A stretch of DNA of 64,000 bases from Terramyces sp. JEL0728 (taxonomy: Eukaryota; Chytridiomycota; Chytridiomycetes; Rhizophydiales; Terramycetaceae). Position 1 is the stretch's first letter; each line of letters begins with the position of its first letter. Positions 1 through 64,000 of the stretch are shown here, one piece after another. The stretch spans positions 186,001-250,000 of the forward strand of contig JADIIU010000005.1 in the NCBI GenBank assembly GCA_027603945.1. The letters are read 5' to 3'. Under the pieces are notes generated by a model. It ran no database searches, was not told the origin of the DNA, and was given only the letters and a program-made list of their open reading frames with translations. A program made the position numbers and the translations under genes.

Positions 1-448
1 TATCCTACAGTTATAACAAAATACTTCTGCTCCGATATTGGTGAGATTTACCCCTCTCTTCTTGATAAATTCTAATGCTTTGTTCTGATTTTCAATTTTC
101 TGCAGTCTAATTCTTGGATTTCTGTTGAATTTACCAAGAGATTCGTCCCCGATAACCTCTATCGTTATACATTATCTACGCAACAATAAAATCAAATTTT
201 CTCCGTTTGAAAGATCGGTTGTCAAGTCTACAATTGGTGGAGCACCGCATTCCTTCAGGTGGATATTTATCCAGTTGGTAAAGGCTGGCGTTACTCGTTA
301 ATTACTCTTTTTTTGTACTTGCTCCCAACTCTTGTCAAAAATTCTATATTAAATAAGCGGGTTACTTGGCAGTGTCAGTAACTGTTTCTGTCGCTGCTTT
401 GCTCAAATCTTGGTTTGAAGTTTTCACAGTAGTAGTTCTTTCGAGCAT
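1..448 (-). CDS. alpha-actinin-like protein, N-terminal part (runs off left edge)
   Basis: Only the start of the gene is in the window. After splicing four introns of 20-22 nt it begins MLERTTTVKTSNQDL and continues into a calponin-homology actin-binding domain with family hallmarks SWEQVQKKTFTNWIN, PPIVDLTTDLSNGENL, VIGDESLGKFNRNPR and NKALEFIKKRGVNLTNIGAE. This is the first CH domain of alpha-actinin/Ain1-type actin crosslinkers, so the product probably bundles F-actin at the cell cortex or division ring. The last intron shown (20 nt) lies just inside the left edge. The spectrin repeats and EF hands expected downstream are outside the window. The start ATG at 446-448 is the first in frame and precedes a short non-conserved leader. 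Fimbrin is less likely because its CH1 sequence differs from this fungal actinin pattern. Confidence 0.9.
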
Positions 449-562
449 GATTCAAAAGTTAAAAAATTCACGTCACCAGATAGGGGATTTGCATATCGCG
501 GATGACGTTGAATAAACAAGAATAAAAAGAAAGTGTTATTTTACTATAAAAAGATCCAGCCA

Positions 563-2972
563 CTAAGGTTTCTTTACTTGGCCATCGTGGCTCTTGTTTT
601 GGAATGCGAAGCTAACTAATTTGGTAGCTCGTGCTTGAGCGTTCAATATTGGATCAAACACCTTGTGAATTTCCATTTCGCTATAGTGATTCCATGTGCT
701 AGTATCAGCAGCGGTTGCCCCAGTGTTTATCGCGTTTTCGGGTGGTCTAATGAGCTGCTTTCCGTTTTGGCACCGCTTGCATCTGAAAGTGTCGTGAGTA
801 TCGCAGAGAGTATCTTCATTGAACTTGAATAGTTGCCGGAGATTTTCCAAAGAGAAGTGTCTTTCTACATCTTGCTCTTCATCGACCACACACGAAGACA
901 GGGACTGCTTGTGTGCCTGACCTAATTATTACATACAGTTTACGCTGGAATATTTTTTCTTCGATAGTGCCAGTAGCAATAAATCGATAGATGAAACAGA
1001 CCTTTTTCTGTCCATCTCTCCAGACTCTTGCCAATGCCTTACATCAACGCTAATTACCTGAGCATCATTTGCGGGATTCCAATCTGGATCAAACAAAATC
1101 AATCTATTAGCACCAATCAAATTAATACCACAGCCCCCAGCTTTGGAAGACAGCAAAAATATAAATTCTGGCTGGGAGGAGTCATTGAATCGGTCTACAA
1201 TTTTTTGTCTTTTTGGAATGGTCATACTCCCGTCCAATCTACAAAAGGCCCATCTCCTTGCCCTGCACATCTTGTCTATATAATCCAATGTCTGAGTATA
1301 GTTGCTGATCAATACTACGATTAAATTAACGTACCAATTTTGTCATCTGATTCTTTTTTCATTTGAACAATCATTTGCTCTAACAAACAGAATTTACCAG
1401 AGAATTCAGGTAAACAGTCATTGAAGTTGAACCCTGGTGGCAACCAGCTGCCGGGAACATCTTTTGCAGTCAATAATGCAGGGTGGTTGACAATCTTTTT
1501 CATCGTAGTCATTGCTTTCAAGGTAGACTGCCCACCTTTCTTTTCGTTGTTTTCAGATTTAATCAATCTCTGCATCTCCTGTTGAGCATAATGTTTGTAC
1601 AGCTTCTTTTGGAATTCAGCCATTCGGCAAAACACTATATATTCATATTTCGTAGGCAGGTATTTTGTGAGTAGTTCAGCGGTTCTTCTAATAATGAACT
1701 TATTGGCGGTGGAAAGCAATTCCTGAAGACATTCTTCACTTCGAAGCTTGTCCTTGTCAGTTGCATCAGCATCTCTTCCTCGCAGAATTGGAATTTCGTA
1801 CTTCTTTCTAAATTCTGCACCAGTTCCAAGCACATTTGGGATGGCAAAACTAAGCAAACTAAAATATTCAGTCAGGTCATTTTGAATAGGGGTTCCGGAG
1901 AGTATCACCCTTCTCTTTGCATTCAAGGCATTCAAAGCAATATAGGTTTGTGAGTCTGCATTTTTTAGTCGATGGCCTGTATTAAAATCACGTACCTTCA
2001 TCACACAGCAACAGCCCAATTTCAGTCTTTTGTAATATTTCAGAGTAGATTCTCAAAGTTTCATAAGATACAATCAGTACGGGATTGACGATACCCCTGC
2101 CCTTTGCCGAGACAAACTGTGCAATATCTTTGCTTGTACTCTCTTTGGTGCCTTTGTTGTCACACGAGTAAGGTCGGACTCTGCCCTCACCCAGCCATTT
2201 GCTTAATTCGTTTGCCCAATTCTTTACCAGACTAGAAGGACATGCAATGATTGCTTTTTCAATTGCTGGCTTTCCTGGAGTTTCTGATTGGCGAAGTAGC
2301 GTCCACAATAAAGTTATGCATTGCTAAATTAAACATTTAATACCAGCGTTTTCCCTAGTCCCATCTCATCCGCCATGATACACCCGAATGCATCTTCTGA
2401 TCTCCTTCCTGTGGTGCAATCAAACAAGAATTTAACCTGCTTTAAATCGTGATTACTCCTTCAATTTGATGCGGTCTTAATACATTTCCTAGTACTGGAT
2501 CTATCACTATCTCTACTTCAAAATCAACAGGCTTACCAGGGTTTTTGGCAACCCTGCTTAATTTTTCATCTTCTGTTAATTGGACAAGTGGTCTAAAGAG
2601 CACAATTGCATTCTCCGCATCCGGATCGTATAATGGATGGATGTTTACTTGAGTGTTTCTCCTTAATCCTAAAGTTGTTCCAGGTCGTAATCCACCATGA
2701 GTTGACGGAGGCGCTTTCAAGAATTTGGGCATCTTGAATGGAACCGCAATGAGTTTTTCTGAATCAGTGTTTGTGCAGAGTGGTTTTAATGGCTTTCTGA
2801 AGGTTGAACTTGGAGTTGGAAGGTATCCCGCAATACTTCGCTTTAACCCTAACTGTTTCTTCACTGGGGTCTGTTCGACAGGCTTATATTCGCCAAGCTT
2901 TGCTCTCTTTGGAATTGGGGCTTCAATCTCCGAATCACAGTCGCTGACAGAGAAGTCTTCGTCCGAACTCAT
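563..2972 (-). CDS. RAD54: RAD54, SNF2-family recombination translocase
   Basis: Spliced product is 762 aa. It is an ATP-driven double-stranded DNA translocase that works with Rad51 in homologous recombination in the nucleus. The N-terminal half holds the Rad54 leader ([15 protein letters not shown]). It is followed by Walker [11 protein letters not shown], the motif II box DEGH in LLLCDEGHRLKN, motif III-like [11 protein letters not shown], and the C-terminal helicase motifs [17 protein letters not shown] and [13 protein letters not shown], then RVWRDGQKK and [18 protein letters not shown], all Rad54-specific. Six introns (922-943, 1038-1057, 1315-1334, 1977-1995, 2324-2343, 2437-2456) restore an unbroken frame. 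One splits the DEGH box and another follows Walker A. The start at 2972 is the only in-frame ATG ahead of conserved sequence. Identification is secure. Confidence 0.97.
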
Positions 2973-3007
2973 CGTGTTTGGGAAAAAATTTCAAAAGAAA
3001 AAGGAAA

Positions 3008-3353
3008 TCAAGTCAATTTTAATTTGGGGTTATCGATAAATAATTCAACCAAGCTCTGCCAATCAGTATCGTTTCCATAGTTGATTGATTTGAAATAAGC
3101 GCCAGCTGCTGCTTCTGGCTGGCCGGTATTCAATAGTGAGAAGGCTAATAGATGTTGTCCTTCTCTTTTTGTTCGTTCATTCCTCAATGCGGGTGCCACG
3201 CATTCAATAACAGCGTGGTAGTGCTTTAGTTTGTAAAATCCTCTGGCTGCATATAACCAACCAATCGCATCTGTATTAATATCGAGTACCTTTTGGACAG
3301 AATCCTACGCTCGAAATGATTTTCTCTCTGACTGTAATTCTCTCTGTTGCCAT
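3008..3353 (-). CDS. small TPR-like protein
   Basis: Predicted 108-aa product. One 19-nt intron (gtactcgatattaatacag on the coding strand) joins an exon starting MATERITVREK to the exon reading DAIGWLYAARGFYKLKHYHA. The helical pattern (W..AA.GFYKLK.Y..., GQHLLAFSLLNTGQPEAAAGAYF) looks like two to three tetratricopeptide helices, so a protein-protein adaptor role is plausible. No specific family is recognised. Without the intron the upstream frame contains an in-frame TAG, which first suggested a pseudogene. The spliced model removes that stop and gives a length divisible by three. The 5' end is uncertain because another ATG-led stretch lies near 3460, but it is not clearly connected. Confidence 0.6.
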
Positions 3354-4684: not shown

Positions 4685-5967
4685 ATGAAGCTGATTTCAA
4701 AAAATTTGGAAAAGAATTCCTCTGGATATGTGAAATTAATAGCGGAAGACACTGAAGATCTTTGGCACACTTATAATTTGCTTTTCAAGGATGATATTTT
4801 AAAAGCGACGACTGTTCGAAGAGTAGTTTCGGAAACAGCAACCGGCTCCACTGAAAAACAGTCTCAAAAAACCACTCTCACGATAAAGGTCGAATCGGTG
4901 TTTTTTGATGTTCAAGCGTCGGTTTTAAGGGTGAATGGCAAAAACATTGCAGAAAACAAGTATGTGAAAATGGGACAGTATCACACATTAGGTATTCACT
5001 CACTAACCAGACTTGGAACTACACCGACCATTTACGATTGAAAAGGAAGAATGGGATTTCATTCACTTGGAAAGGATCCAGGATTGTTGTAATGTGCAAA
5101 ACAAGGCAGACATTGGCGCGATTGTTTTGCAGGAAGGATTGGCTCAGATTTGTCTGGTAACGGAAAACATGACAATTGTAAGACAGCGCATAGAAACGAA
5201 TGTGCCCAAGAAAAGAAGAGGAACCACAACAGATCATGACAAGGGAATTATAAGATTCTTCCATCAGATTTATCAAGGAATCCTGCACCACATTAATTTT
5301 GAAATTGTAAAGGTGTTGATTATCGCCAGTCCAGGTACATTTTGCTGACCAAGGCTTTATTAAAGATGGATTGCACAAGTATATCATTGATTTGGCGCTG
5401 AAAGAACAACAAAAGATTATTTTGGATCACCGCGACAAGATAATTATGGTTCATTCCTCGTCTGGACATAAACACGCCCTGCAAGAGATTCTACAAGATC
5501 CGCAAGTACAGTCCAAACTGTCAGACACCAAATATCAAAAAGAAGTAGGAGCTCTCGAAGAGTTTTACAGGACACTCGGGAATGATCCTTCCAAGGCATT
5601 CTACGGCTATGATTATGTGTTGAAAGCAAGCGACAGAGGCGCAATACAAACGTTGATGGTGACGGATGGTCTGTTTAGGTTATTTGTTACTTATCGCAGG
5701 TCGTCTAATTTACAAGAGAGAAGAAAATATATTTCAGTGGTAGAAAAAGCAAAAGAAAACGGTGCAAATATCCACATCTTTTCTAGTTTACATACCTCTG
5801 GTGAACAGCTGACCCAGCTGACTGGTATTGCAGCGATATTGCACTTTGGATTACCTGATTTAGAAGAGGAGGTTGCGCAGGAACAAGAAGAACGGGAAAG
5901 GTTGTTTAAACTGAGGGAAGGCGATGAGTTGATTGAGGAAGACCCTACCGATTCTTTAGGCTACTAG
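4685..5967 (+). CDS. PELO: Pelota/Dom34 ribosome-rescue factor
   Basis: Spliced 414-aa product starting MKLISKNLEKNSSGYVKLIA, typical of Pelota. With Hbs1 it recognises ribosomes stalled on truncated or structured mRNA and triggers subunit dissociation (no-go/nonstop decay). Visible family blocks are AEDTEDLWHTYNLL, VRRVVSETATGS, DIGAIVLQEGLAQICLV, PKKRRG, SPGFIKDG and the C-terminal eL30-like domain with ILHFGLPDLEE. Two 19-nt introns (4992-5010, 5335-5353) restore the reading frame. Family members lack the GGQ motif of eRF1, and none is seen here. An upstream in-frame extension was rejected because the conserved N-terminus begins at this ATG. Confidence 0.96.
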
Positions 5968-6400: not shown

Positions 6401-9400
6401 ATGTCATTGAAATGGGATGATATCGACAACAGACAATTAAAAGTCAAGCAGCAGGCAAAGGAGCTAAAAGATTTTCTCATTCAACAAAATGAGGAAGCAA
6501 GGAGACGGTACCATTTATTAATGCAGGAAGAAACAGGAAAAGATTGACGACAGAGAGGCGTATAGAAAAATAGTCTTGGGGGTTGGCAACGAGCATTTGA
6601 AAGCAATTAAACCAAAGACTCCGCAAAGCAGTAATATCGCGACTGGAGCGGGTTCACTCAATTCCACCGCTATCAACAATAATCTAGTTCCATTACCCAA
6701 TATCAGTGTACTAGAATCCATGGCACCTTCTCTTCCGTTGATTGCTAGTCTCAGCGTTCCAGACAGCTACCCAAGGGCTTTTTCAGATGATATAAACACT
6801 TCTCTACAAATATCTGAAAACCAAATACTGCAGGAACGGCGGGCAAGAGCCGTGGTAGAAAGTGAGTTACAGAGTGGGAAATATCTTACAGCAACTCTAT
6901 CAGCAAAGATTGACTCTCTCCAAGAGAACATTAGGACTGAAAATGCAAATATCGTTGAAATTACCAAACATTTTAGTCAAAGAGATCAAGAAGCTAGAGA
7001 AGCATTGGGCAGACTATCGCAAAAGCTAGAGTTGGAATCACAAAAAGTACAGCGCTTGGTCTCAGAGTTGGCCACATCTAAACAACGGGAAAGTATAGTT
7101 GGGACAGAACAAGATGGCCAAATTAAAGCATTAAATGACAAGATTAATATTCTGACTTCAAAGTTGGAGGCTTATGCCCAAAAGACAAATGAAGTGGGGA
7201 ATTCACTAAACTTTCAATCAAGAGAGCTTAGTATGGAAGTCAGAAAACAAAATGATTCGCTAAAATCAATCAAAATGCATGAAAACGCTCTGAATGCGTT
7301 ATCCGAAGCAGTAGGATCTACCTCCGAGAATCTATCAAAGAAAATGCAAATTGCTGCAAATGAACTGTTTCAAAAGATCGAACAAGAGGCAAGGGCAAGG
7401 AGACTACTTGAAGAAAGTATCCATCACGATACTCAAGAGTACAGAAGAATGATTGAAAGACAGTTTGTTGACAGAGTAGATTCCTTACAGCATGCCACCT
7501 CATCACAGATTGATACCGACAGACAAGATTTTGAAAAGATCGCTAACGCTCTCCAGAATAAGCTATTGCGGCTCGAATCGACCACTTTTGACGGCCAAGA
7601 GCAGCTGGCACAGCTAATTAGCCAAAGATTGCAATTGCTGGACACTCAGCTGCAAGATTTGGATCTTTCGAACAGGAAACTAGAATCAAAAATGGTTACT
7701 GCAATTTCAGAATTGTCACAGCGCTCCGAGCTAACAATTGCCAAGTCTGAAGAAAGGAACGAAAAGAAATTCAAGGATATCAACAAAAATGTGGTGTCTG
7801 TTCAAAAAATAGTCCACGAGTCCATTCTACTTTCTGAAAAGACTTTGTTGGATAAAATTAAATCTCTTGAAGATGTATTAAGGGTAGAAATTAAATCACG
7901 AATGGATTCAGATTCCAAACTAAACGAATACATACTGTCGGCTGAAGCTATTAATGAAGGATTTCAAACTAAATTTGAAGATGTTCAGATTGGGATGGAG
8001 GAATACAAACAGGAAAACGCCAAAATACTGAATTTAATCAAGAATACTGCCTTACAATTATCAAAATCGCAAGATCGATGGACAAGTACATTTGAAACCG
8101 AAATTAGCAGTGTGAAAACGCAAATTTCGAAAAATAAGATCATTTTGGAAAATCAATTCGATAGTTTCAAGCAAGAAGTATTAAACAACGTGGAAGAAAA
8201 TGTGAAATTGAATGAAGAGGAAAATCTCAAAACTTTCAAAGGAATGGAGACTTTGGTTCAAGGAAATGCACGGCAAATCGGTTCTATTTCTGAATCTCTA
8301 GATTCCCTCAAACAAGAAACTCGGAAAGCCTCAAGTATACAATTGGCACAAACTGACGCTACCTTTGAAGCGTTGAAAATAGATTTGGCTGGAAAGTGCA
8401 CCTTGAAAACTTTTGAGGATAAAGTCTTTGAAATCAACCAAGAATTAAAAGCAGCCAACACAGCTGCAGCCTCAAACTTTAATAATTTGCAAGACAAGAT
8501 GTCTGCTTTTGTTGAGCAGAACGATTTCAATGAAACCAAACAGCTGGTGACCACATTTGACGATCGACTGTGTGCCTCAGAGAAAGGCATTGAGGAGGCG
8601 GTTGGTTCAATCAATCGTCTAGCAGAAAAAGCGACTACCGTAGATCATGAAATATCAGAGTTGGAAAAAAAGATGGCGAGCCATGAAAAAGATATCAATG
8701 AAAAAGTTGCGAATGTTAAATTCAAATTCGATGAAATGGAGCAAAGTAATCTGGAAAATGAATCCAAAAAGAATGTTTTGTTGGTTGAAATTGCTTCGAC
8801 AGAAAAGCAGTTGCAAAAAGATATCAAGAAAGTGGAGCAGCAGCTAACACAATGTGCAGCAGCCAGTAGCGAGCAAGAAGAAAAAATTAACGAACAAAAT
8901 AGAGCAATTGCGAAATCGAAAAACGAGCTGGAGGCTTATATTATTGACGAAAATATTAAAAACAAAGATGCCGTTACTCATTGCCAGAAACATATTAATT
9001 CCGTTGGAGAAACCACAAAGCGATTAACTGAACTGTTGAATGAAACCAATACAAAGTTAGCCAAGTCAGTAGTAGACTTGGCGTCAGATTCAAAAGAATA
9101 TGTTGATGAAAGCCTAAAGCGCCGTGAAGATGATTTAAGAAATTTCATGGACGAGGTTGCAAGTGAGCAGGAAAAACAAGCTAAATCTATAGATTCGAAT
9201 TCAAACGCAATTCTATTGTTGGCCAGCCAAGTGGAAAAGGAAAACACCTCCATTGATGGCATACACTCGGAACTAAAAGAAATTAAAAACGAAGTGGATG
9301 ACCAAGCAGTTTCGGTGAAACAACTGAAATTCTTGTCAAATGCAAACAACTCGATGGAAGAAGTGGATGAAAAAGTTAAAAGGATATCAATGCAAATAGA

Positions 9401-11725: not shown

Positions 11726-14468
11726 TTAATCGTATTTGAGAAACTCAGGATCACTATCCTTGCTCAATCCTACTCGTCCTGATATCATCAAGACCGCCAT
11801 GAAAGCCAAGCCCAGCTCATTCACAAGATAAGTGTGCTTCCAACCAAAGATATATACAACAACAACGATAATCCAAACCGGAACCTTCATATTGTACTCC
11901 TTGTTTGGAACCAAAGATAGATATAGTGAGAATAGAATGTGGGTTATATATCCAAGGTAATCATTGCCAATTGGATTTGAAATTCCATTTATCAGATAAT
12001 GCAATGATTGGATTAAGGATGGAACGTTGAATCCAAATAAAAGCAGCTGCAATGTCAGACAAAGTATTTGCAGGATGTTGGATTTCTAAGAATTAGATAT
12101 AAAGTTACTTTAGTTTTAAGCTTTTCAAAGGAATTAATACATGAGACGAATGAATGTAACACTACGAACAGCAAAAGAATAGCAGTGGAGATTACCAACG
12201 ACAATAAAATCATGATAGCGGCGAACCCTAGCTTGACAGATTGCTTATTGACGAATAACAATCGAGACTTGGCAAATTTAGACCCCCGCGCTGTACAATA
12301 GTAGATAATCAAAAAGACAGCGCTCATCAATCCAATCGATAAATAAAATTGAACAGTGTACAAGGGTACAAAGATGAAATCCCTATTTCCATTCAGTACA
12401 TTACCAGGAGATCCAAAGGCAAAGTTGATGACTGAACTCGCAACTGTCAAGTACAGCAATCGCATGTTGAGAAAGGTGTCAAATATAGCAAAGGGCGAGT
12501 CCAAACGATCGCTTGTGATTGCCAACAACAACGCACAAAATCCAAGCGATACCCATAGAGTCTTGAAGAAGGTTGTGAATGCCGATAAACTTGCAATTAT
12601 GTCAACATTCAGTGTTAATTCAAAGGGGTCAGTATTTGGATCTGTCCAGATATCCAATTCCAATCCAGAATTTAAATCATTATTCCTGTCAATATAGAAA
12701 TACGCTAAATTATTGTTTATCATTGAAATTGGCCTGGATTCATTACCAATTGTTTGCATTATGAGCATTGGAACCTTTGTTGGAATCTGATAGTCTAGCC
12801 CGGTAACTACAGAGACCCCTTTTAATCGTTGTATTTTCACTCTATACTTGATTATTGGATCTTTGATTGGCAGGAATTTTACCCTGGTTTTCACTGAACT
12901 GGGTGTGATTGTTAATCCAGCACCAAGTAGAAACTCTAAATTTAGCCCAAAATACTTGTGGTCAAGTCATTTTCTATTCTATACTGTGGTAGCCTTACAT
13001 CGGCAAACAAAAATCCAGCGTTTTCAGGCGGAACATGGAAAATAAATGTATCAATATCATCTAGATCTTCCAGCGATACATCCACAGCTGTCCAATATCT
13101 TCTGTTTCTTTGTGTCATGTCAGTTGGATTTCTGAATACAATTTCGAAATCTCCTTTATCTGGTATTGGGAGTGCTTTCAAAAAATGATTCATTGATTTG
13201 CATTGAAATTCTGTATTTATAGTGTCTTTTGCACACGCCAAAACATTTAGGGATTCAATATCACTAACCAGATGCATTTCATAGAACTTTCGCCTATCCA
13301 ATGGAGGCAGGGTAATTCTGATATAACGATCTTCAAATGCAGCAGTCACTAGTGCTGGCAATTCTGCATAATTATCTCTCAGCATCACTTTGACATCTCT
13401 CAGCGGAACTTTGATGTCTCCAAAGTGCGGCTCGGGCGATGGTATTTTCGGTCCAACAAATAGAGGAGATAAAAGATCCACTCTTTCCCAAATTGATGCA
13501 TTTCTGATTTTTGAAACTTCAAAAGCACCCAATACAACCTTTTGAAGGATCTGGTCACACCATACGGCACCTATATTAATACCAGAAACCTTCATGGTCT
13601 GCGGATGTCCAAATTTGAGGAATCCCAGTAGAGAATCCATGGAATGAGCGAGACATGTCGGCAAAGCCATCTATATATGTCGTGTCAGAGTCCAAGATAG
13701 TATCTTTTGAGCCTCCGGCAATTGATACAAATGTAGTGTCCTCCAATTTACCATTGTCCCGATGTTCTGATTTCCAAAACTGGTTCACCTCTGTATATAA
13801 ATCAACCATTGAGCGAGTAATAGGAATTGGAGGCTCTTTATGTGGCGAGGATAATGTAAAGATATTTCTTATCGTTCCGGGTTTATAACTGTCCAATGTG
13901 GGAATATATCTGGCAACGATTCCTCCCTATCATGAAATCCAATCTACCATTGAGTGGCCGACAACAACCACTTCATCAGGATGTTCATTTTCGGGATATG
14001 ATTGTAATATGTATTGTACTGCTTCATTCGCGTAGAACGCCTGGTCTTTGATCAGATTTGAATGAAATGCACTAAATTCATCCCTTGTTTCGACTACATT
14101 AGCTGTTCCTACCTGCGTATAAATCCAGAGGAAGATCCGTCCTATTTCTTTGTAGCCATAAACGGTAAGCGACTGAGCCAAAAGACTTTACTTGCTTGTA
14201 ATTTCCAGCGTTCCCAGGTATAAATAACATTGGAATTCCTCTAACCTATATTAAGGCAAATTACATCTCGTCCTGCTTCGTGATGGTTGAACAGCTGGTA
14301 TCGGTGATTCAAAGCTTTGTTTGAACTCTTGAAATCCAACAGGGTATAACTCCCCCATATCCACGTTCCGTCGCAGTGCTTGGGATCAATTCCGTAATAT
14401 AGTTTGGAATATATGGATAGTAGTAAAACAAGAACTGAAACAAAAGTTGCTGTAGTGGATTTCAACAT
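11726..14468 (-). CDS. BST1: GPI inositol-deacylase (BST1/PGAP1)
   Basis: Spliced 873-aa protein with six introns of 19-23 nt. It is an ER-membrane hydrolase that removes the acyl chain from the inositol of GPI anchors before ER exit. The N-terminus has a signal-anchor ([18 protein letters not shown]), then the lipase fold with [16 protein letters not shown] and the nucleophile elbow [14 protein letters not shown]. An intron falls inside that motif, between Met and Gly. Also visible are [23 protein letters not shown], and several C-terminal membrane helices. Its presence fits the GPI-anchored protein at 55.9 kb. Start ATG is the first upstream of the signal-anchor. Confidence 0.95.
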
Positions 14469-18056: not shown

Positions 18057-19340
18057 ATGATAAATAGTAATTCAGTAAGATTTGCTTGATCCAAGGTGCA
18101 CGATAAAGACTGCGATACCACAAGTAAATACCGATTGGTATCGAGACAGTCTCCACAGCAAGGAGAAATCCTTCTTCCTAAAGAAACCGATAGTAAGTTA
18201 CATTAACAATAGAATACCGAAAAATACTTGAGCCTGCAGTTATACGTACATTTTTACTAACCAAGTTGAAATTTTGACAGTCGGAACAGCTGAATATAAT
18301 CCAAATAATGTCCCGCCTTTCCTGTTTGCAGCTGCAATTCTGGTAAACAGTGATACCCATGAAGAGATAGTTTTCCTTGAAGATCAAGTTACTCCATCGT
18401 TGACAGGTGCTAGCACCTCCAGCGTTTATAACTTGGCCGATCCAGAGAAAGAACTGGATTATGGGACTTTTCTTGTTTTCCCCGATATAACTGTTAAAAA
18501 AGAAGGTTTATTTCGATTAAAGATTGTCCTCTATGAAATCGAATGGTATTCTGTACTAACAAAGCGGATTGAACGACCCTCTATCAACAAAGAGAAGAGT
18601 TTTGAGGCAGTCTGAAATTGTTACGGATACCTTCCAAGTGTTTCCGTCCCGAACCGGAGCTTCAAAAAGGAGCCAGCTGAAGCGAATTGTTCCTTCCCTG
18701 CTCTCTCGTTCATTTGCAGAACAAGGGGTGAAGATGAAGCTGAAGCGCCAGCCAAGGTACATTTTTGTTTAGTCAGATCAAAATGGGTAGTAGACTATCC
18801 GGAATACGAAATCAAATCGAAAAGAACACCAAGCGTATCAGAATCAAACATCAAAATTGATATGTTGCTGGACTCTGACGATGCAAACAAAAACCTTGAA
18901 AATTCAAACATTAATCAAAAACTAACAGATTCAAAAGTATTTGATCTACCTAGTACCAAGAAACTGCCCAAATTAGCAAACAAACCAAAAGACCGAGAGC
19001 ATGGTCCAGATTCGAATCAAAGACTGTCAGATTTGAAGCATACTCCTGATATAGAGCCCTTTGACAATAAGGCTCAAATAACTAGTAATACCCGGGAATT
19101 TCAGAATAGAAGAATTGGGGATCTGACGAACCCTGGTAATTATTGATTTATTTAGGTCCTAGAGCGCCAGTTCGGTTACCTCCAATCCACTCCCTGTATA
19201 ATCAGCATCAGATACCGTACTATTCTTACGACCGTCGGTATCAACCGTATTATCCGCAACATTCAAGAAGATGGAGCAGCAATCCTCATTTACCACCAAA
19301 GTATTACGGACAACCCCCAAATTGGAATAACGGTCAATGA
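18057..19340 (+). CDS. velvet-domain regulator 2
   Basis: Spliced 387-aa protein with six introns of 19-21 nt. The first exon is only six codons (MINSNS). Domain blocks are YRLVSRQSPQQG, YRKILEPAVI, PPFLFAAAILVN, STSSVYNLADPEKEL, FLVFPDITVKKEGLFRLKIV and SRSFAEQGVKMKLKRQPR. The basic, Pro/Tyr-rich tail (YYPQHSRRWSSNPHLPPKYY) is much shorter than in velvet 1. An extra intron (20 nt) interrupts the tail. The N-terminal block after RQSP is more diverged than in the other copies (KETDKYRKI in place of the usual DRDKK), so dimerisation or DNA contacts may differ. Confidence 0.9.
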
Positions 19341-47150: not shown

Positions 47151-47407
47151 GAAATAAAATTATAGATGCAAGTTATTTCTCTTTCGCTGCTCGTTGATAA
47201 CACCAGTACGAACTAGCACTTTGCAAAATAGATACCTGTGGTTGGGCCATCAATCGCATAACCAACCACCGCACTTGTGAATAAGCTAAATATACAAGTA
47301 TGTGAACACCTATTTTGATTGTTACTGTCTTGGGCTTCTTCAAGGAAGCTACCGAGATCCCGCACCATGACTCCGCCTACTTATTCAGATGAACTTTCAT
47401 TTTTGTA

Positions 47408-51546: not shown

Positions 51547-54253
51547 TTAAAGCTGTCTTCGGATAAGTTCTCTGGTCCATCGGGCATAGTTTTTGGTTTC
51601 TGGATTGCAGTGACGGTCGGTTTTAACATCCTTGATGAATTGGGTAACCCACGGAGCACCAAAGAAGGCTTTAAGATGGCCAGGCGGAATTGTATCTGCC
51701 AAATCTCCCAACAAGCCCATCATGATCTTTACATACGATTCGCTTTTTTCAGCCTCTTGGGTAGCAACTTCCAAGAATCCAAAGATTTGAGTAGCATAGT
51801 TCACAAGCAAAGCGCCTTTTTCTGCCTGTTTCAACCCCTGGCAGATCCCAACATAAGCTTCTGCAATAGCCTCTCTAGTTTCTACCACGTAGTCATATTG
51901 TTCTTGAGTAAACTAAATAAAAAGAAAAATACCTGTGGAATGTACATTAGTTGGTTAGAGATATCCCCGATAATACCCATTGCAGGATGAACATACACTT
52001 CAAATTTACCACCAATTGCCAAACTAAGATCACCAATTGCGGATAGACACGATGGACGCACTTTACGGTGGAGGTTAGGGAAGCTCAACAACTGTCCGAT
52101 AGAGTTGATTAATGGTTCGCAGTAGCTCAAAATAGAATCGCCAAGTGCTCTGCAGATATCACCCAACACACCCAAAACAATCGAGCAAACAGTGTAGTCT
52201 TCATAATTAGTTAATGCAGCAAGTATGAATGGCATAAGTGAATCCATATAGCGCAAGAAATCCCCCTCCACCGCGCTTGCTACTGCACCAATTGCAACAA
52301 AAGCTTCTTCCTTGACAGTTGAATCTTTGTGGGCATTGCTGATAACAACCAACAGATTCTGCATGATAATATCTGCTCCTGTGCGGATTGGCACTGGGTC
52401 GTAGTGAATAATACTAGTCAATATACTGCACAAATTGGCTTGGTTTTGATAATAGGCACGTCTTTCGTCATCGCCAACCAAGCTGTTCACTTGAGAAACA
52501 GTGTAGACTAATCTTTCCACAGTCATTTGACACAGATTAGCAATTAATGGCGAACAGTCCTTTGCGCTGTTTTCAATTAATACAGATATTGCCTCAAATG
52601 CCGATTGCTGGAAGTTTGTATCAACCCCAGGCTTTTGCGAAGCAGTCATCAGTGCGCCAACAAGCACTTCAAAGTATGGGCTAAGAGAACTGGAGGCATC
52701 TTGATGGTTTTTAGTTCCCAATTGTTCTGCTAAACACGTAATGCTCCATGCACAGCTTCCAGCAATTTTACTGGTGTCGCTCAATCCTCGGATAACTGCA
52801 TCTACGATCGCTTGAATTTCCTGCGGCTGAATAACTTCTAGCAAGTTTTCACAAATTCTCCCCAAAGTCCAAGCAGCTGAATCTTTAACAACTGGGGATT
52901 GGTCGCTAATGAGCTGCAGTAGGATCGGTAGCGCTTCTGATACCAATTGAGACATTTCTTGAGGCTCTGGACCATCAATGATAGAGCCAAAGGCCATACA
53001 TGCTGTATCCCTGTATCTCCAGTTGTCGTGTACAATATGTTGTTTGATAAATGGCAGTACATGTGGAATAACATTGGATCCACAGACACTAGCAAATAGC
53101 TGTAAACAGGTAGCAGCTGCCATAGAAGGGGTCCATTCATCGCCATCTTCATCCTCTTCTTGGGTAGTCATGATGTGTAGCAAAACAGGAATGGTTTCAG
53201 GAGCAGCACCCATCGCGAAATGATAGCATGGCATAGAAGTATCACCCTGCCGTTAATTAGTATTACATCTTGAATAGCATAGTTGCGATCACACTCAATT
53301 TCACAAATAGTAGACCAGAATTCAATGGCTTGCAGCACCACGCGTTCATTGCTGTGTCTCATACCAACAAGTGTAAGTCCGTATAATGCCTTTTGCATAT
53401 ACAAGGTCATAAAGTCGTAATACATGGCGATGATTTTAACAAGACATTCGAAACCCATAACTTGAACATCTGCGGAATCAGGAGTCTGTGTTGCTTCACA
53501 AACAATCTGCATCACATAGTTGCGCTCTTCTTCTCTAGCAAAGTTTTCTCTAATAAAAGTAAGTGAGTTGGCTAGTGCTTGCAAAGCAGTGAATCTAACT
53601 TCAGGAGGGTTGCTAAATTAAATCAAAACTACTTTTCTTTCTTGGCTGCACCATCAGCGACGGCAGTCAAGATGGCATTTGATTGCGAGGATAAAATATC
53701 TGATTGCACAACTTCGCATATGAAACCAAGACATTGCAAAGTTGACTTTTTCGCTAATGGAGATTGAGCGGTTTGTACTCTTTCCAGTAACAGTCCAATC
53801 AATTCTCCCCATTGACCAAGGTTTAATTCGATATTGGCAATAGCTGCAACGATTTGCCCGGCTACAGTGCCTACTGTGCCATCCGTAGATCCGAGCGAGT
53901 GCAAAATCATATTTTTAATCTGGTTCCTTGTATTCTGATCAACCGCCATCCATCGCTCAGAAAGCTCCCTTTGTCGCTCAAAGTTCTAATTAATAAAAAA
54001 CTACTTTGGCTTCGATAGCATTCTTCATCATTAACCCAGCACTTTGTCTAATTGACTGGTGAATTCCCTCGTTGCCTAATTCTTGGCACAGCATTCCCAT
54101 GAATTGCGGCTATGGTTAATCACAATTACAAAGTTTTCTTTGGCGTAGTTTTCTAATTGCTGTTGTGCTCCTTCACGAGTAGCGGTGACTGGGTTAGTAA
54201 AATGTACCTGGAGAAAGCGTATTGTTTAAGAGTTCGGTGAAACTCATAGTCAT
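51547..54253 (-). CDS. KAP95: importin beta-1 (Kap95)
   Basis: Spliced 862 aa, six introns of 19-20 nt. HEAT-repeat nuclear transport receptor that binds importin-alpha or cargo and is released by Ran-GTP. Blocks include FTELLNNTLSP, QSAGLMMKNAIEAK, ERWMAVDQNTRNQIKN, STLQCLGFICE, NPPEVRFTALQAL, YRDTACMAFGSIIDGPE, DSAAWTLGRICE and SCAWSITCLAEQ. The acidic DEDGDEW loop typical of the importin-alpha/Ran regulatory region is present. Two ATGs (54253 and 54247) could start the protein; the longer is used. Length is that of Kap95. Confidence 0.97.
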
Positions 54254-54434: not shown

Positions 54435-55221
54435 TTATTCGTCAAACTCATGTACACTGTGATAAATCCCAATCACACCAAAGATTAAAAAAATAACTGC
54501 TCCAACAAAAGTAACAGTCTTTGGACTAATCTTAGTAGCGAGCTACGTTAGTTATAAATACCATTCTTCCTCCGACTACCGCGCACGCACTGCAAATAGC
54601 ATGTCCTGCCAATCCGCCAATAGTAACCCACCAGAAATCTTGTGCGCCAGATAACGCAACAGTAGCTATTTGCGACCGGTCACCCCTACGTTAATTCCAT
54701 TTACCATTCCGCCAAGAATGTCATGACGAATGTTTGAACCCACACTGGTGATAAAAATCCAAGTGCTCTTTCTTTCCAGCTACGATTAATCAGCTCGTAA
54801 GCGTTTATCCCGGGATAACCATGTATACATACCTTTTTTGCTGACCTTCTTCCATTAAAGCCGCTTCCTCCGTCTTTTTGGTATTATCCAACTCCTGGGT
54901 AACTTCATCCAGTTCTTCCATGCACTCATTTCCACTCATCCCATAAGCATCTTTAACCAATTTCAGTCCAAATATCAAAAACAACACTGACGCTAATAAT
55001 TCAGTGTACTGCTTTGAAATCAGTTGCGGTAGTATTTGTCCCATCAATGCGGATAATATTGTCATTACTAGCAGTGCTCCCATTGCTGCGCTGAATATTA
55101 GTAGTCTAGGGTGTGTCATTGCCATTACAGCTGCTATAAGGAAGGTCTTGTCTCCTATTTCCGATACTAATATCACTAGGAACGATACTACTAGTGATTC
55201 TAATCCTGATGATGGTTCCAT
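54435..55221 (-). CDS. GDT1: GDT1/TMEM165 Golgi cation transporter
   Basis: Predicted 240 aa. Golgi Ca2+/Mn2+:H+ antiporter family (UPF0016). Both signature motifs are seen: first repeat SEIGDKTFLIAAVMAM, second repeat FLAEWGDRSQIA, the latter split by a 19-nt intron. Another 19-nt intron follows GGRM. The two halves are joined by a central loop where the reading frame must shift. A 26-nt intron (54794-54819) fits numerically but lacks a branch-like motif, so this junction is doubtful. An ATG 27 nt upstream is also possible as start. Confidence 0.85.
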
Positions 55222-55901
55222 ATTACTGATTTTTGAATATGGAAACAAAAGTCAAGCCTGAAAAAAGCAGTGGCACACAACTACTCGATGTTTCCAGGAT
55301 AAAGACTAGGAGCTCATAGTCGCTGTAAAGAATTGTTGCTCATATTATTACTTTGCTGAGTCGTTTAATTAGCCAATATTACCTCACATCCATCGCAGGT
55401 GATATTTGCCAACGCTTGGTATTGAATTGCCTGTAAACCTATAACCCGCAAGTTTCTAATATCCAAACTAGCAATTCTCCGCTACGGTTCATTATTTCTT
55501 TTAGTTGGCGAACCACAATGTCCTTTGGCCGCTATGTCCTTGGACACACTGCCTTTTTGAATGTTACTGTGCAATCCAAACAGGCCCAGCTGTTACGTCA
55601 TTTGGTTTCAAGGAGGCGTGTGTAGTATTTTTTATTATTCGGGAAGGCGTTTGGCGGGATAAAAGACCCATTGAGCAATAAAATAAAAACGAGAGAGCTT
55701 GTGCCAGCAGAACTCTTATTCAGCAATCAACCACTAACCAGCGAATTGATTGCTTGCTTTTACTTTGCAGAGTCACCGATCTTTTGCCAAAGCCCGCTTG
55801 AAAATGTTTCGTGTAACCACCCCTCAATCGAGCCTGTTTTAGATGATGAATGTATAAAAATAGAAAAAACCAAAAGCAAGTAAACTCTTTTATATATAGA
55901 A
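55222..55901. other. intergenic, 680 nt
   Basis: Separates the GDT1 and GPI-protein starts (divergent). An open frame at 55671-55883 has no ATG and no family pattern. It probably holds the promoter of the highly structured GPI-anchored protein gene. Confidence 0.5.
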
Positions 55902-57977: not shown

Positions 57978-58492
57978 TTATTCAACGTTAAACTTTTTGG
58001 CTTGTTCTCGAACATTCTTTTCATATGCCAATCTGTCCTTGGTAAACAATTTATTCGCAGTCCCATTTGCAGGCGAGTCAGGGTTAGGATCCTCCAGCAA
58101 ATCCTGAATCCCAAGTAAAATCTCTTTAATCGCAATCGACGGTTTCCAAGAAATATTCTCGTTTATAATTGATAAACAGACTAGGTTAAGTTGGTTTACT
58201 TTCACCATCAGTGTACACATTTGGATGGAATAGTGGTGGATTGAATTTGCATATTGGTGGTTTTGTAGGATACTCTTCTGGGAATCTCATTGTTAGTTTA
58301 TACTGTCCGCCTGTATTAGTTGAATTTACCTTCCCATATTCCTCCTTCTCTTCCGGGAATGATGCAATCCCAGATTGTCAGGTCTATGGCTTTGTTTATG
58401 GTTTTGGGTTTTGCAACGAATCCAAATGGGTGATCTTTTCTCCACTGTTTTCGTTCCTGTGTCAGTCGCTGAGTCAAGATTGAGCTGGACAT
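57978..58492 (-). CDS. UBC9: SUMO-conjugating enzyme UBC9
   Basis: Spliced 158 aa, two 19-nt introns. E2 enzyme that takes SUMO from the Aos1/Uba2 E1 and conjugates it to lysines in the nucleus. Family sequence is plain: [56 protein letters not shown], catalytic Cys in [31 protein letters not shown] and the C-terminal [12 protein letters not shown]. The second intron has two possible donors; the 19-nt form (gtaaaccaacttaacctag) preserves the DGEICL spacing and is used. Confidence 0.96.
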
Positions 58493-59326: not shown

Positions 59327-60123
59327 TCAACAAACATGCTCTGGCACTATGTTTTCTTCATTCAAGAGATACAGCTTTCTGAAAAACAATTCTTTTAGCA
59401 GCTGGAAGCAATTTTCAGCCAACGCAGCATCATACCTTCCTTTACTGTACTCGTCTCTGATAAACGCATGCTGGGCTTGGAATTCGCACCAGCTAAAAGT
59501 GACATTCTTTTCGACTAAATTCTGGTAAATCTTTAACCTTCCTTCCTGTGGAATATGCGTGTCTTGTTTCCCAAATATCATTAGTAATTCTCCTTGAATC
59601 TCTCTTGTTCTTGATAACGAATCACTTGCAGTTGACAAAGATTCTTTGTGAATATCGGTTGGAAAGTAGCATACGCTTGCTCTTACTCTTTTGTCAAATG
59701 CACACCTGTAAGCCAAATGGCCACTAGATTAGCATTAGATTACCCCAGACACATTCCTGTTGCACCTAGACTACCAGTACACGTGCTTAGCGATTGCAAG
59801 TAATCCAAAACCGCTGTTGCGTCATCGTCATACCCTTTCAAAGTCTTGTCAACCTTCAACTTGTTTCCCAAATCAGTTCCAGGAACATCGTAAGGAATTA
59901 CATGCCCTAAAGGCAGGAATTCATGGTAAGATTCAGGTGAGGCGACTATATACCCCTGTGAACAAATTTGTCGACAGAATCTTTGTACCGGTCCAGTTAC
60001 TTGGTAAATCTCTGTGAATACCGCTACTCCAGGGTATTTGTTTGTTTTAGGCGGATGGAAAACGTGTACTCGCATTTGTCCTGTTGGTGTCTGCAAGTCC
60101 ACATGGTACTCTGTGATTAGCAT
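59327..60123 (-). CDS. dienelactone hydrolase family protein
   Basis: Spliced 258 aa, one 20-nt intron (gtaatctaatgctaatctag) splitting the nucleophile motif. Alpha/beta hydrolase with VAVFTEIYQVTGPVQRF, the Cys elbow GMCLGG, candidate Asp in FGKQDTHIP and His in QAQHAFIRDE, giving the Cys-Asp-His triad of dienelactone hydrolases. Family members hydrolyse cyclic lactones or small esters in the cytosol; the substrate here is unknown. DDATAVLDYL before the elbow is typical. Confidence 0.92.
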
Positions 60124-60772: not shown

Positions 60773-62620
60773 ATGAATTATTTCTCCGATATGAATGAAG
60801 AGTACGATGCAGACAGCGATCAAAAGCAAACCACATTGAGCGACACAAATTCAATCCAATTCAGTTTGGCAAGCGAAGAAGAATACTCTGGAGAAACAGA
60901 AATCGAAAAGACAAATCTCAAAAACCCAATTATTAAAAGTCTATTCAAAGGAGATGATGTATTGTACTTTCCAAAAGAAAACGAAACAGGTAATTGCTTG
61001 TTAATCTTGTTTCCAAGTTACCAAACGGTAATAGTAAATTTTTAAAGTGGAAAATTCACCAAACTGCACCCAAAGTTGTCAAGAGTAAAAGTTTCTAAAA
61101 CAGACGCGGTTAAAAATGCTGGATTTGAATTTGTTACTGCTGGAGATCAATGGCTGGGAACGTGGGGGAAGCATTTACCTTTGGATAAATTCAAAAAATT
61201 CCACTCTTGGCAAAAAGTAAATCACTTTCCAATGTCATTTGAAATAGGGAGAAAAGATAAAATGTACCAAAACTACGCTTACATGCGCCAACGGTACCCT
61301 CATGATTTTGACTACGTTCCCGAGAGCTACATTCTCCCATCAAATAGAAAACAGCTGGACCGTAAATTTAGCAATTCAAGCTGCTGGATACTAAAACCAC
61401 CAGCATCAGCTAGAGGAATCGGAATAAAAATAGTATCAAAAATGCTGGATATTCCCCGCAAGAAAGAATTCATTTGCTCCAAATACATTTCAAATCCGTT
61501 ACTAATCAACAGCAGAAAATTCGATTTACGCTTATACGTACTGGTATCTTCATTCGATCCACTAAAAATATATATCTATAAACATGGTTTAGCTAGATTT
61601 GCAAGTGAAAAATACAGTGACACACTAGGAAAGAAATCCAAATACAGGTTCTCGCACCTGACAAATTACAGTGTCAACAAGAAAAACAAAAAGATCAACT
61701 GTGAAGAAGGGATTTTCCAAACCGGCAGATTTTCAATGGCGGAAAACAAGTGGTCGTTGGAAACTCTAGAGTCTTACTTTGAATTAAACCAAATTGACTA
61801 TCAATCAGTAATGAAAAACATACATTCATTGATTATTAAAACTGTAATGTCTGCCCATTCACCAAACGTGTCTGGAGTGCGAAATAGCATCCCAAACAAA
61901 ACAGGCTGTTTTGAACTGTTTGGATTCGATGTGCTACTGGACGATACTCTAAAACCATGGTTAATGGAAGTCAACATCTCGCCTGCAATGAAAGGATCCT
62001 GCGATATGGATTTCAAACTTAAATCAAGTTTAATTGTTGATATTTTCAACACTATTGGAATCAAGATGAAAGATGTGGAGCTGGCAAGGAATCATATAAA
62101 GAAAAAAGTTGTCGTCGGCAACAAGGTGTTTCTTTCTGTATCTGAACGGATTAAACACCGATCTGTCTTACTTGGCGAAGATGTTCTGTCCAACTTGCTG
62201 CCTGACGATTTGCGTGTGCTTTGTGAAACAGAAGACGAGGTAAATCCATACTAAAAAGTACAATCGAAGAGGGGATTTTATCCGTCTGTGGCCAAGTGTA
62301 GACTACCAAGACCATGTAAAATACTTGCAACCATTCAACTACTACGACAGACTAATCCACAACTGGACACTAAAATATCCACTCTACGATCGAATCGATA
62401 TACTTCTGAATAAGCCCAAGCATTGTCAATATAAAATACCGGTGCAGAAAACTATTTTATCGCGATTATCATCCAATTCATCGCAGATCACCGTTGTGAA
62501 TGAACGAAAACCAAAGAATAAAGGGTATTTGAAGGGCCAAGGTAGGTTTTGTATAACGTAGAACTAGCTCCTATTCGGCGAGAGTATCCAAAATCCCTGT
62601 ACTCACTGGTGCCTAGTTGA
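60773..62620 (+). CDS. TTLL4-like tubulin polyglutamylase
   Basis: Spliced 586 aa. The tubulin-tyrosine-ligase-like ATP-grasp domain adds glutamate chains to tubulin tails, mostly in axonemes. Visible: GDQWLGTWGKHL, NHFPMSFEIGRKDKM, WILKPPASARGIGI (nucleotide loop), FDLRLYVLVSSFDPLKIY, HLTNYSVNKKN, ELFGFDVLLDDTLKPWLMEV and NISP. Introns: 60990-61017 (28 nt), 61028-61047 (20), 19 nt after EDE, and 62542-62561 (20). The first two flank a 10-nt exon (61018-61027). The last intron extends the protein by ELAPIRREYPKSLYSLVPS. Confidence 0.92.
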
Positions 62621-63140: not shown

Positions 63141-63184
63141 TACGCGTAAAATTGTCAAGTACATATTTTATTATTTTCACTGCT

Positions 63185-63759
63185 TTAGTTCAAACCGAGA
63201 CGCTTGCGTTCTCCCGCTACCACTTTCCTTACACGGGCCAAAGAACCCTCTGTCCCGTTCTTGCCCAATCTGCAGTTCAATGCAGTATAAGGAGCATCAA
63301 TTATTACTTGTTCCATTACAATTATAGATGAATTATGCCATTGGACTGGTAAAGTCTTTGATAACGCGTCAAATACCAACTAGAGTCAGAAACAAGTACC
63401 TGCGCTTCATTAGAAACACCAACTCCAATTTTTTTATATTTTTCAATTTGCTTTTCTTCAGATTTCTTTACTTTTTGCACCAATTTTTGTTCCTGTTCCA
63501 AATCCATATAAAACAATGGCAAATCCCGCTTTGGTTTAGCTACTTGACAAGTATCGATAGAATCAAATGTAAATAATACAAAATCCAAGTTTTTTGTTTG
63601 CAAGATGACTACTTTTACAATTGGTTCCAGACAAAATATTTGGCCGATAGTGTCGTTGATTTTTATCCATTTGCCTACGCAAGATGAGGGGTCATCTGGA
63701 TATGTGTTTGTTGCTCTGGCAATAGGATTTTCCATCTTTGTCTCGAGATGAAATTCCAA
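63185..63759 (-). CDS. LSM12: LSM12-like RNA-associated protein
   Basis: Spliced 184 aa, one 20-nt intron after SNEAQ. The N-terminal Lsm-type barrel (CVGKWIKINDTIGQIFCL, KVVILQTKNLDFVLF) is followed by a basic linker helix and the AD (anticodon-binding-like) domain with GVSNEAQLVFDALSKTLP, IIVMEQVIIDAPY and ARVRKVVAGERKRLGL. LSM12 associates with ataxin-2/Pbp1 in stress granules and translation control. A second ATG at 63735 would shorten it by eight residues. Confidence 0.9.
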
Positions 63760-63811
63760 ATTTAAAACTTTTTGAAAATCCTTTATTCCTCAAACTTGAG
63801 AAAATAGTGAC

Positions 63812-64000
63812 CTATTTCGTTAAAATTAATTTGACAATACTACGATGATTTTTCTCTGATGCTTTTTTTATCGCATAGTTATCCATTGCAGACCGGTCGA
63901 CTCGCTTGTCTTTTAACAGCAACTCTACAATGTCTTCATGGCCGCACTCGCTAGCAATTCGAATTGGATAGTTGTCTTGAGTGCAAACGTCGCATTTATC
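63812..64000 (-). CDS. ankyrin-repeat protein, C-terminal end (runs off right edge)
   Basis: The last 62 codons of a minus-strand gene: DNYPIRIASECGHEDIVELLL is one complete ankyrin repeat, followed by DNYAIKKASEKNHRSIVKLIL as a final, degenerate one. No other domain is visible in the part present, and the remaining repeats lie beyond the window. Function cannot be inferred. Confidence 0.8.
   Translation of the reverse strand, partial: DKCDVCTQDNYPIRIASECGHEDIVELLLKDKRVDRSAMDNYAIKKASEKNHRSIVKLILTK

What the first reader, a model, noticed from the sequence alone, without database searches (positions are those of the whole stretch)
1..64000. Extreme intron miniaturisation: about 100 introns, nearly all 17-24 nt
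Placing introns by conserved protein motifs gives lengths almost entirely from 17 to 24 nt, mode 19-20. They start GTA, carry CTAAC/TTAAT/TAATA-like branch sequence whose A is only about 4-6 nt from the AG, and have no polypyrimidine tract. Known ultrashort-intron systems are nucleomorphs and some ciliates; a free fungal nucleus with this pattern is remarkable and implies a modified spliceosome.
Basis: partly seen in the sequence, partly recalled or inferred. Interest (0 to 1): 0.88.

Follow-up and report, generated by a model that had tools for sequence, protein, structure and literature searches.

The report
Chytrid fungus with 20-nucleotide introns
In the stretches examined of this chytrid fungus's genome almost every intron is only about 20 bases long, far shorter than known spliceosome geometry seems to allow, although most of the splicing proteins looked for are the ordinary ones.

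Summary
My gene models give 84 introns in the window: 81 of 18-24 nt (mode 20), a 53-nt candidate, and two that look spurious. Without gene models, 52 GTA-branch-AG pairs lie 17-24 nt apart against 8.3 in shuffles. In six conserved genes all 26 predicted introns are 18-22 nt, with homology at the junctions. Five velvet paralogs share five intron positions and phases while lengths vary 19-24 nt. Two near-identical contigs differ by 1-nt indels in 2 of 6 introns, with no indel in coding sequence. The genome is a chytrid close to Boothiomyces. The branch adenosine lies 13-14 nt from the 5' splice site and 5-6 nt before the intron end; the human B complex is estimated to need about 52 nt (PMC6692369, passages). 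A 'modified spliceosome' stays open: U2 snRNA, U2AF1, U2AF2, SF1, Slu7, Prp18, YJU2 and CWC25 are present; RED and SMU1 were not detected; U6 and U1 snRNA were not found, but contigs under 10 kb seem not to be held. No RNA data were available.

The parts
922..2456 (-). Rad54 gene, 6 introns: 2437-2456, 2324-2343, 1977-1995, 1315-1334, 1038-1057, 922-943 (19-22 nt)
   Evidence: spliced protein aligns without a gap at all 6 junctions to RAD54-like 1z3i; coordinates
4992..5699 (+). Pelota/Dom34 gene, 3 introns: 4992-5010, 5335-5353, 5679-5699 (19, 19, 21 nt)
   Evidence: gap-free at 3 junctions to Pelota 5lzw
6508..6526 (+). intron 19 nt in a long coiled-coil-like gene
   Evidence: gene finder
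12936..14264 (-). PGAP1-like gene, 5 introns: 14246-14264, 14094-14112, 13927-13947, 13571-13589, 12936-12955 (19-21 nt)
   Evidence: gene finder; Pfam PGAP1 over residues 69-286 of the spliced protein
14785..15508 (+). velvet paralog 1, 6 introns: 14785-14808, 14906-14927, 14961-14983, 15276-15296, 15383-15403, 15489-15508 (20-24 nt)
   Evidence: 5 positions and phases shared by five paralogs; Pfam Velvet
18075..19155 (+). velvet paralog 2, 6 introns: 18075-18095, 18193-18212, 18246-18265, 18546-18564, 18757-18776, 19136-19155
   Evidence: 5 shared positions
20351..21045 (+). velvet paralog 3, 5 introns: 20351-20373, 20471-20490, 20524-20543, 20821-20840, 21024-21045
   Evidence: 5 shared positions
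22967..23658 (+). velvet paralog 4, 5 introns: 22967-22990, 23088-23107, 23141-23159, 23437-23455, 23639-23658
   Evidence: 5 shared positions; Pfam Velvet
24733..25880 (+). velvet paralog 5, 7 introns: 24733-24754, 24852-24872, 24906-24927, 25211-25229, 25319-25339, 25425-25444, 25862-25880
   Evidence: 5 shared positions
26066..27638 (-). coatomer delta gene, 7 introns: 27619-27638, 27558-27578, 27404-27423, 27177-27197, 26732-26750, 26547-26565, 26066-26084 (19-21 nt)
   Evidence: no gap within 5 residues of any of 7 junctions to coatomer delta 5a1u
29264..29284 (+). intron 21 nt
   Evidence: gene finder
30344..30364 (+). intron 21 nt (reading frame also open without it; least certain)
   Evidence: gene finder; open frame
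34804..34821 (+). intron 18 nt
   Evidence: gene finder
36438..36457 (-). intron 20 nt
   Evidence: gene finder
37191..38135 (+). 2 introns: 37191-37212 (22 nt), 38118-38135 (18 nt)
   Evidence: gene finder
44088..47705 (+). three LRR paralogs: introns 44088-44108, 45798-45817, 47686-47705 at one shared position and phase; extra 46539-46559
   Evidence: shared position; Pfam LRR for one paralog
49915..50100 (-). lanosterol synthase gene, 2 introns: 50083-50100 (18 nt), 49915-49936 (22 nt)
   Evidence: aligned to lanosterol synthase 1w6k: first junction gap-free, second next to a one-residue gap
51913..54207 (-). Kap95 (importin beta) gene, 6 introns: 54189-54207, 54110-54129, 53986-54004, 53613-53632, 53247-53266, 51913-51932 (19-20 nt)
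   Evidence: five junctions gap-free to Boothiomyces JEL0838 Kap95, the first (where that model is fused) gap-free to Globomyces; one-residue gap against Globomyces near the 4th
54543..54832 (-). Gdt1 gene: introns 54686-54704 and 54543-54561 (19 nt) and a 53-nt candidate 54780-54832
   Evidence: gene finder; Pfam GDT1
55880..55899 (+). intron 20 nt near 5' end of a repeat-rich gene (weak)
   Evidence: gene finder
58181..58329 (-). Ubc9 gene, 2 introns: 58311-58329, 58181-58199 (19 nt)
   Evidence: gap-free at both junctions to Ubc9 3rcz; unspliced frame has stops
59724..59743 (-). dienelactone-hydrolase gene, intron 20 nt
   Evidence: gene finder; Pfam DLH spans residues 19-240 of the spliced protein
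61028..62561 (+). tubulin-tyrosine-ligase-like gene, 4 introns: 61028-61047, 61085-61103, 62240-62258, 62542-62561
   Evidence: gene finder; Pfam TTL lies within one exon, so it does not test the junctions
63356..63399 (-). 2 predicted introns: 63380-63399 (20 nt), 63356-63376 (21 nt), separated by 3 nt; at least one boundary doubtful
   Evidence: gene finder

Best explanation
The segments are real U2-type spliceosomal introns of a chytrid fungus close to Boothiomyces, shrunk to near a functional floor of about 19-21 nt. Shown from sequence: GTA donor, YTRAY branch motif, AG acceptor, two tight spacings (5' splice-site G to branch A 13-14 nt; branch A to last G 5-6 nt), no pyrimidine tract after the branch, and genes for U2AF1, U2AF2, SF1, Slu7, Prp18, YJU2, CWC25, U1C and a canonical U2 snRNA. 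Inferred: the intron is read as one composite site. U2 pairs with the branch region, and an AG 5-6 nt on serves as acceptor without a pyrimidine tract, with U2AF2 held by SF1/U2AF1 contacts or by the T-rich spacer upstream of the branch. Because only 2-3 nt remain between the usual U6-pairing and U2-pairing zones, the extended U6 and U2 helices of the human B complex cannot both form; they must be shorter or form one after the other, apparently without SMU1 and RED.
For: Gene-model-free enrichment at 19-21 nt; 26 of 26 introns in six conserved genes 18-22 nt with homology at the junctions; shared positions and phases with drifting lengths in five velvet and three LRR paralogs; 1-nt length differences in 2 of 6 introns between near-identical contigs, 2 indels in 121 intron nt against 0 in 2,241 coding nt; motif and spacing statistics with shuffled controls; U2 GUAGUA pairing 4.8 of 6 on average against 2.5 at random coding A (partly by construction of the motif score); splicing factors found; human B-complex estimate of about 52 nt (PMC6692369 passages).
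Against: No RNA evidence. Gene models were trained in part on short candidates. 24 of 467 predicted introns are over 30 nt; some, such as the 53-nt Gdt1 candidate, may be real. U6 and U1 snRNA were not found, so the pairing argument uses recalled U6. My prediction that Slu7 and Prp18 would be lost, as in Stentor, failed. RED and SMU1 absence rests on six-frame searches of incomplete contigs; itself warns that its answer does not show absence, and one search scored 39 of 145 candidates.
Confidence: 0.8

Rival explanations
1. The introns are ultrashort but recognised by exon definition: complexes assemble across the short exons and only later switch to the intron, so the tight intron geometry matters less at early steps.
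For: Internal predicted exons have a median of 177 nt, a size compatible with cross-exon recognition; U2AF1, U2AF2 and SF1 are present.
Against: Single-intron genes are predicted in the window; exon-side signals are weak (0.79 bits upstream, 0.25 downstream); the switch to an intron-spanning B complex still meets the 13-14 nt limit.
Confidence: 0.2
2. The splicing machinery is truly re-engineered, with altered U6 or U1 or loss of U1-70K, SMU1 and RED, and the short introns depend on it.
For: U6 not found by Rfam or by three patterns, U1 snRNA not found, no clear U1-70K (RRM hits 28-34% identical), RED and SMU1 not detected; +5 of the donor is T in 49%, G in only 21%.
Against: Contigs under about 10 kb seem not to be held (contig lengths); the searches score only the best candidates (U6 48 of 1328, U1 41 of 233); SSU rRNA could not be tested; U1C, YJU2, CWC25, Slu7 and Prp18 were found.
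Confidence: 0.15
3. Artefact: sequencing indels or pseudogenes mistaken for introns.
For: No RNA data; some gene-finder introns are surely wrong.
Against: GTA...AG segments with a branch motif at fixed spacing, paralog-shared positions, frame maintained in conserved genes, 84 and 104 motif pairs in two other 100-kb stretches.
Confidence: 0.02
4. Nothing special to this genome: ultrashort introns are an old trait of a wider chytrid clade, known to annotators though not described in papers I could find.
For: NCBI already holds a Boothiomyces JEL0838 Kap95 model that matches the spliced prediction.
Against: Ten literature searches listed no description; no relative's DNA was available, so breadth is untested.
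Confidence: 0.3

Closest known systems
Chlorarachniophyte nucleomorph introns (Bigelowiella natans, Lotharella oceanica)
   Same: GT-AG, intron-rich, 18-24 nt or mostly 18-23 nt (PMC4035089 passages)
   Different: Relict endosymbiont nucleus of 0.37-0.61 Mb; no branch-point signature reported for B. natans (PMC2483917 passages). Here a fungal genome of at least 15 Mb with a clear branch motif
Stentor coeruleus 15-16 nt introns
   Same: Tiny introns, branch A at a fixed position (10th or 11th nt); commonest intron starts GUAAU; U2AF1, U2AF2, SF1 detected (PMC9505925 passages)
   Different: Slu7 and Prp18 undetected and the Cwc25 N-terminal plug distinct in Stentor; this chytrid has Slu7, Prp18 and a Cwc25 N-terminus like the human one; branch A here at nt 14-15
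Mikrocytid 16-17 nt introns
   Same: Very uniform tiny introns (PMC10245619 passages)
   Different: Intracellular parasites with 17-19 spliceosomal proteins identified and 224 introns in M. mackini
Paramecium about 25-nt introns
   Same: Short introns throughout (PMC5014332, start of abstract in the listing)
   Different: Longer, and no branch-point signature according to PMC2483917 passages
Microsporidian introns (Encephalitozoon cuniculi)
   Same: Fungus-related; short introns with a branch motif CTAAY (PMC2483917 passages)
   Different: Intron-poor parasite; mean 35.8 nt in that paper

Membership tests
U2-type spliceosomal introns | GT-AG boundaries | tested here: inconclusive
   All models require GT..AG by construction; GTA in 386 of 437 and TAG or CAG in 369 of 437 go beyond that, though learned profiles favour them
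U2-type spliceosomal introns | branch motif complementary to U2 GUAGUA upstream of the AG | tested here: met
   YTRAY best motif 69% vs 20% shuffled in 437; 81% vs 21% in the homology-checked 26; 64% vs 23% in the 33 paralog introns; U2 with GTAGTA
U2-type spliceosomal introns | removal restores a conserved reading frame | tested here: met
   26 introns in 6 genes: 24 with no gap within 5 residues, 2 near a one-residue gap to one homolog
U2-type spliceosomal introns | excision seen in RNA | not testable with these tools
   no RNA data
Ultrashort-intron genomes (nucleomorph, Stentor, mikrocytid type) | nearly all introns under about 30 nt in a narrow range | tested here: met
   437 of 467 predicted introns 17-24 nt in 264 kb, about 1.8% of the genome
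Ultrashort-intron genomes | no branch-point signature, as stated for Paramecium, B. natans and dicyemids in PMC2483917 | tested here: not met
   2.2 introns per kb CDS with a motif at fixed spacing
Ultrashort-intron genomes | Slu7 and Prp18 undetected (reported for Stentor, not a general criterion) | tested here: not met
   both found
U12-type introns | RTATCC donor and TCCTTAAC branch (recalled) | tested here: not met
   consensus only: C at +5 13% and +6 17%; single introns were not classified
SMU1/RED-dependent short-intron splicing (human) | RED and SMU1 genes present | tested here: inconclusive
   not detected in the contigs held

The most novel reading that the evidence does not exclude
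[quoted passage not shown] This would be an opisthokont solution to tiny introns that is distinct from Stentor's, since it keeps Slu7, Prp18, the Cwc25 N-terminus and a readable branch motif.
Probability: 0.4. Interest if true: 0.85.

Novelty: new variant of a known kind. Interest (0 to 1): 0.72.

Why it matters
The fungal intron survey I could see cites a 63-nt mean in Cryptococcus as relatively short (PMC8476143 passages; two chytrids in its table); about 20 nt is a third of that. Lineages with many tiny introns were reported to show no branch-point signature (PMC2483917 passages); this genome keeps one. Relatives of this fungus are in culture (recalled; a collection paper, PMC7537106, is in the listing), so the open question of how little intron a spliceosome needs, and how it gets past the roughly 52-nt spacing estimated for the human B complex, could be tested in an opisthokont with a nearly standard protein set.

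Tried and rejected
Prediction tested and failed: a short branch-to-AG distance should make Slu7 and Prp18 dispensable (recalled yeast work) and Stentor lacks them (PMC9505925 passages), but both are present here.

U6 search led nowhere. Rfam gave at best 27 bits, in two near-identical contigs inside a predicted coding gene (48 of 1328 candidates scored). ACAGAGAWGATYAGCA gave 3 places with one mismatch and none exact; two were viewed and looked coding, the third was printed from the wrong strand and not viewed. CCCTGCRYAAGGATGA gave 14 places, one exact; three were viewed and none resembled U6. A gapped pattern for an intron-split U6 gave 22 places against 6 for the backward control, an excess I cannot explain; none was convincing from the printed match and one was viewed with its surroundings. 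U1 snRNA: none. Not claimed as loss, since short contigs seem not to be held.

SSU rRNA typing: four tries unanswered; taxonomy rests on one protein, Kap95.

Lengths not divisible by three (334 of 437) and stops in 75 of 103 introns of 3n length could mimic a nonsense-decay signature, but my gene finder cannot see harmless 3n introns, so I make no claim.

Rejected: the first gene-finder pass without signals, whose long introns can contain real exons (its 214-nt intron holds a lanosterol synthase exon between two short introns). Rejected as spurious: the 149-nt and 12-nt window introns.


Full report
WHAT WAS CHECKED. The window is G000:C5:186001-250000 of an assembly held as 15.0 Mb in 231 contigs. 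GC is 36-43% per 2 kb, with no tRNA by ARAGORN and no Rfam hit at gathering threshold. I wrote a simple gene finder (3-periodic coding model, GT-AG introns of 12-400 nt) and ran it on the window and on 200 kb from contigs C1 and C2. With no signal model and a flat length prior, window only, 9 of 33 introns were 18-21 nt and the other 24 were scattered over 40-400 nt. After learning donor and acceptor profiles, at first from candidates of at most 30 nt, still with a flat length prior, 196 of 341 introns over 264 kb were 17-24 nt and the rest were spread thinly. With a learned length prior, 437 of 467 were 17-24 nt and 24 were over 30 nt. In the window: 81 of 84.

INDEPENDENT OF GENE MODELS. Taking every acceptor of the form YTAA[CTA]N1-3YAG on both strands and asking where a GTA lies upstream, distances peak at 19-21 nt: 52 pairs at 17-24 nt in the window against 8.3 in 100 shuffles, 84 vs 13.2 and 104 vs 11.4 in the other two stretches. 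The acceptor pattern came from the candidates; the distance was free. The 25-80 nt range is also above shuffles (97 vs 58, 144 vs 94, 163 vs 82), without a sharp peak apart from 6 pairs each at 37 and 38 nt in the window; I did not explain this.

HOMOLOGY. Spliced proteins of six conserved genes were aligned with homologs: Ubc9, Rad54, lanosterol synthase, pelota, coatomer delta and Kap95. They hold 26 predicted introns: 18 nt 1, 19 nt 10, 20 nt 10, 21 nt 3, 22 nt 2. At 24 junctions no gap lies within 5 residues (read by eye); the second lanosterol synthase junction and the fourth Kap95 junction lie next to a one-residue gap to one homolog. The aligned parts of these genes need no longer intron. 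The NCBI model of Kap95 from Boothiomyces sp. JEL0838 (96% identical) matches the spliced prediction without gaps past a fused N-terminus, that is over five of six junctions; Globomyces covers the first.

INTERNAL REPLICATION. Five velvet paralogs (Pfam run on two of them) share introns at five alignment columns with the same phase; lengths are 24/21/23/24/22, 22/20/20/20/21, 23/20/20/19/22, 21/19/20/19/19 and 20/20/22/20/20 nt, and the sequences differ. Three LRR paralogs share one more. Two pairs of near-identical contig stretches were compared (probably haplotypes): in C199/C111, 2 of 6 introns differ in length by one T between donor and branch motif (21 vs 20 nt), giving 2 indels in 121 intron nt against 0 indels and 15 substitutions in 2,241 coding nt; in C30/C33 the one intron and the 786 coding nt are identical. 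Both indels lie in T runs, where sequencing errors are possible, but coding sequence shows none.

ANATOMY. Over 437 introns the donor is GTA (88% A at +3), A at +4 53%, T at +5 49% with G only 21%, T at +6 59%. Of these, 411 have a strong branch motif when it is sought 3-8 nt before the last G: the branch A lies 13 or 14 nt after the donor G in 348, and 5 or 6 nt before the last G in 363; the two distances are only weakly correlated (r -0.19). When the motif is sought more widely, 324 of 419 strong motifs lie at 13-14 and 328 at 5-6. In shuffled interiors a strong motif at the 5-6 spacing occurs in 12% against 78% observed; 13% against 85% in the homology-checked 26; 12% against 67% in the 33 paralog introns. 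The spacer upstream of the branch has 43% T against 27% in coding sequence. U2 GUAGUA can pair at 4.8 of 6 positions on average against 2.5 at random coding A, though the branch scoring favours part of that pattern.

MACHINERY. Found in six-frame or Rfam searches of the genome: U2 snRNA, 140 bits, canonical; U2AF1 in four hit stretches, U2AF2, SF1 and U1C; a full-length U2AF2 model with an RS-like N-terminus, itself holding four introns of 19-20 nt (two RRM stretches pass in Pfam); Slu7 and Prp18; YJU2, CWC25 with a conserved N-terminus, and part of ISY1. Not detected: RED and SMU1 (WD40 hits of at most 41% identity, none before residue 180, 39 of 145 candidates scored). Unclear: U1-70K. Not found: U6 and U1 snRNA. 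The last-numbered contig, C231, is 10,081 bp, so shorter contigs seem not to be held and absences are weak. U4, U5, SPF45 and Prp8 were not searched.

MECHANISM. In the human B complex a 17-nt U6/5'SS helix, a gap of about 21 nt and a 14-nt U2/branch helix add up to about 52 nt, and activation on introns with a short 5'SS-branch distance needs SMU1 and RED (PMC6692369 passages). Here the whole distance is 13-14 nt and the linker between +6 and branch minus 5 is 2-3 nt in 348 of 411. The human arrangement cannot form. I infer that the two helices are short or are formed one after the other. The limit applies equally to nucleomorphs, Stentor and mikrocytids; what differs here is a fungus (free-living as far as I recall for Boothiomyces) with a readable branch motif and with Slu7, Prp18 and a human-like Cwc25 N-terminus.

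LITERATURE. Ten searches listed no paper that I could recognise as describing ultrashort introns in a chytrid or other free-living fungus; several listings were cut (for example 25 of 5,124, 15 of 1,171, 12 of 338), the library holds only openly licensed papers, and others may say more. Papers were seen as passages only: PMC8476143, PMC10639083, PMC10245619, PMC12316389, PMC13391722, PMC9505925, PMC6692369, PMC2483917, PMC6572847, PMC11649378, PMC5741210, PMC3680246, PMC4035089; PMC3207900 had no match for intron or exons.

VERDICT. It is a new variant of a known kind: an ultrashort-intron genome in an intron-rich fungus with a positioned branch motif. The modified-spliceosome reading is open.

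Noticed in passing
window 14755-25956: Five velvet-type genes in a near-tandem run on the + strand with the same intron layout (Pfam run on two); looks like a local expansion of a fungal regulator family.
   Followed up: partly
window 43867-49146: Three adjacent LRR proteins with a membrane-like segment and long Q/P-rich tails (by eye; Pfam run on one).
   Followed up: partly
window 10100-11407, 28736-33540: A group of Ser/Thr-rich proteins that by eye share a layout of T/P-rich stalk, one hydrophobic segment and a charged tail.
   Followed up: no
window 54780-54832: A 53-nt candidate intron in the Gdt1 gene; the NCBI model of the Boothiomyces relative lacks the following exon.
   Followed up: partly
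L031/L032 (C199/C111), L053/L054 (C30/C33): Near-identical contig stretches, consistent with partly separated haplotypes or recent duplications.
   Followed up: partly
genome G000: U6 and U1 snRNA not found and no clear U1-70K among the contigs held; the gapped U6-like pattern occurs 22 times against 6 for its backward control, unexplained.
   Followed up: partly
P0001: The NCBI Kap95 model of Boothiomyces JEL0838 is fused to Gdt1, the neighbouring gene here, a sign that annotation struggles with these gene structures.
   Followed up: no
window, both strands: In the motif-only test, GTA-to-acceptor distances of 37 and 38 nt occur 6 times each, above their neighbours.
   Followed up: no
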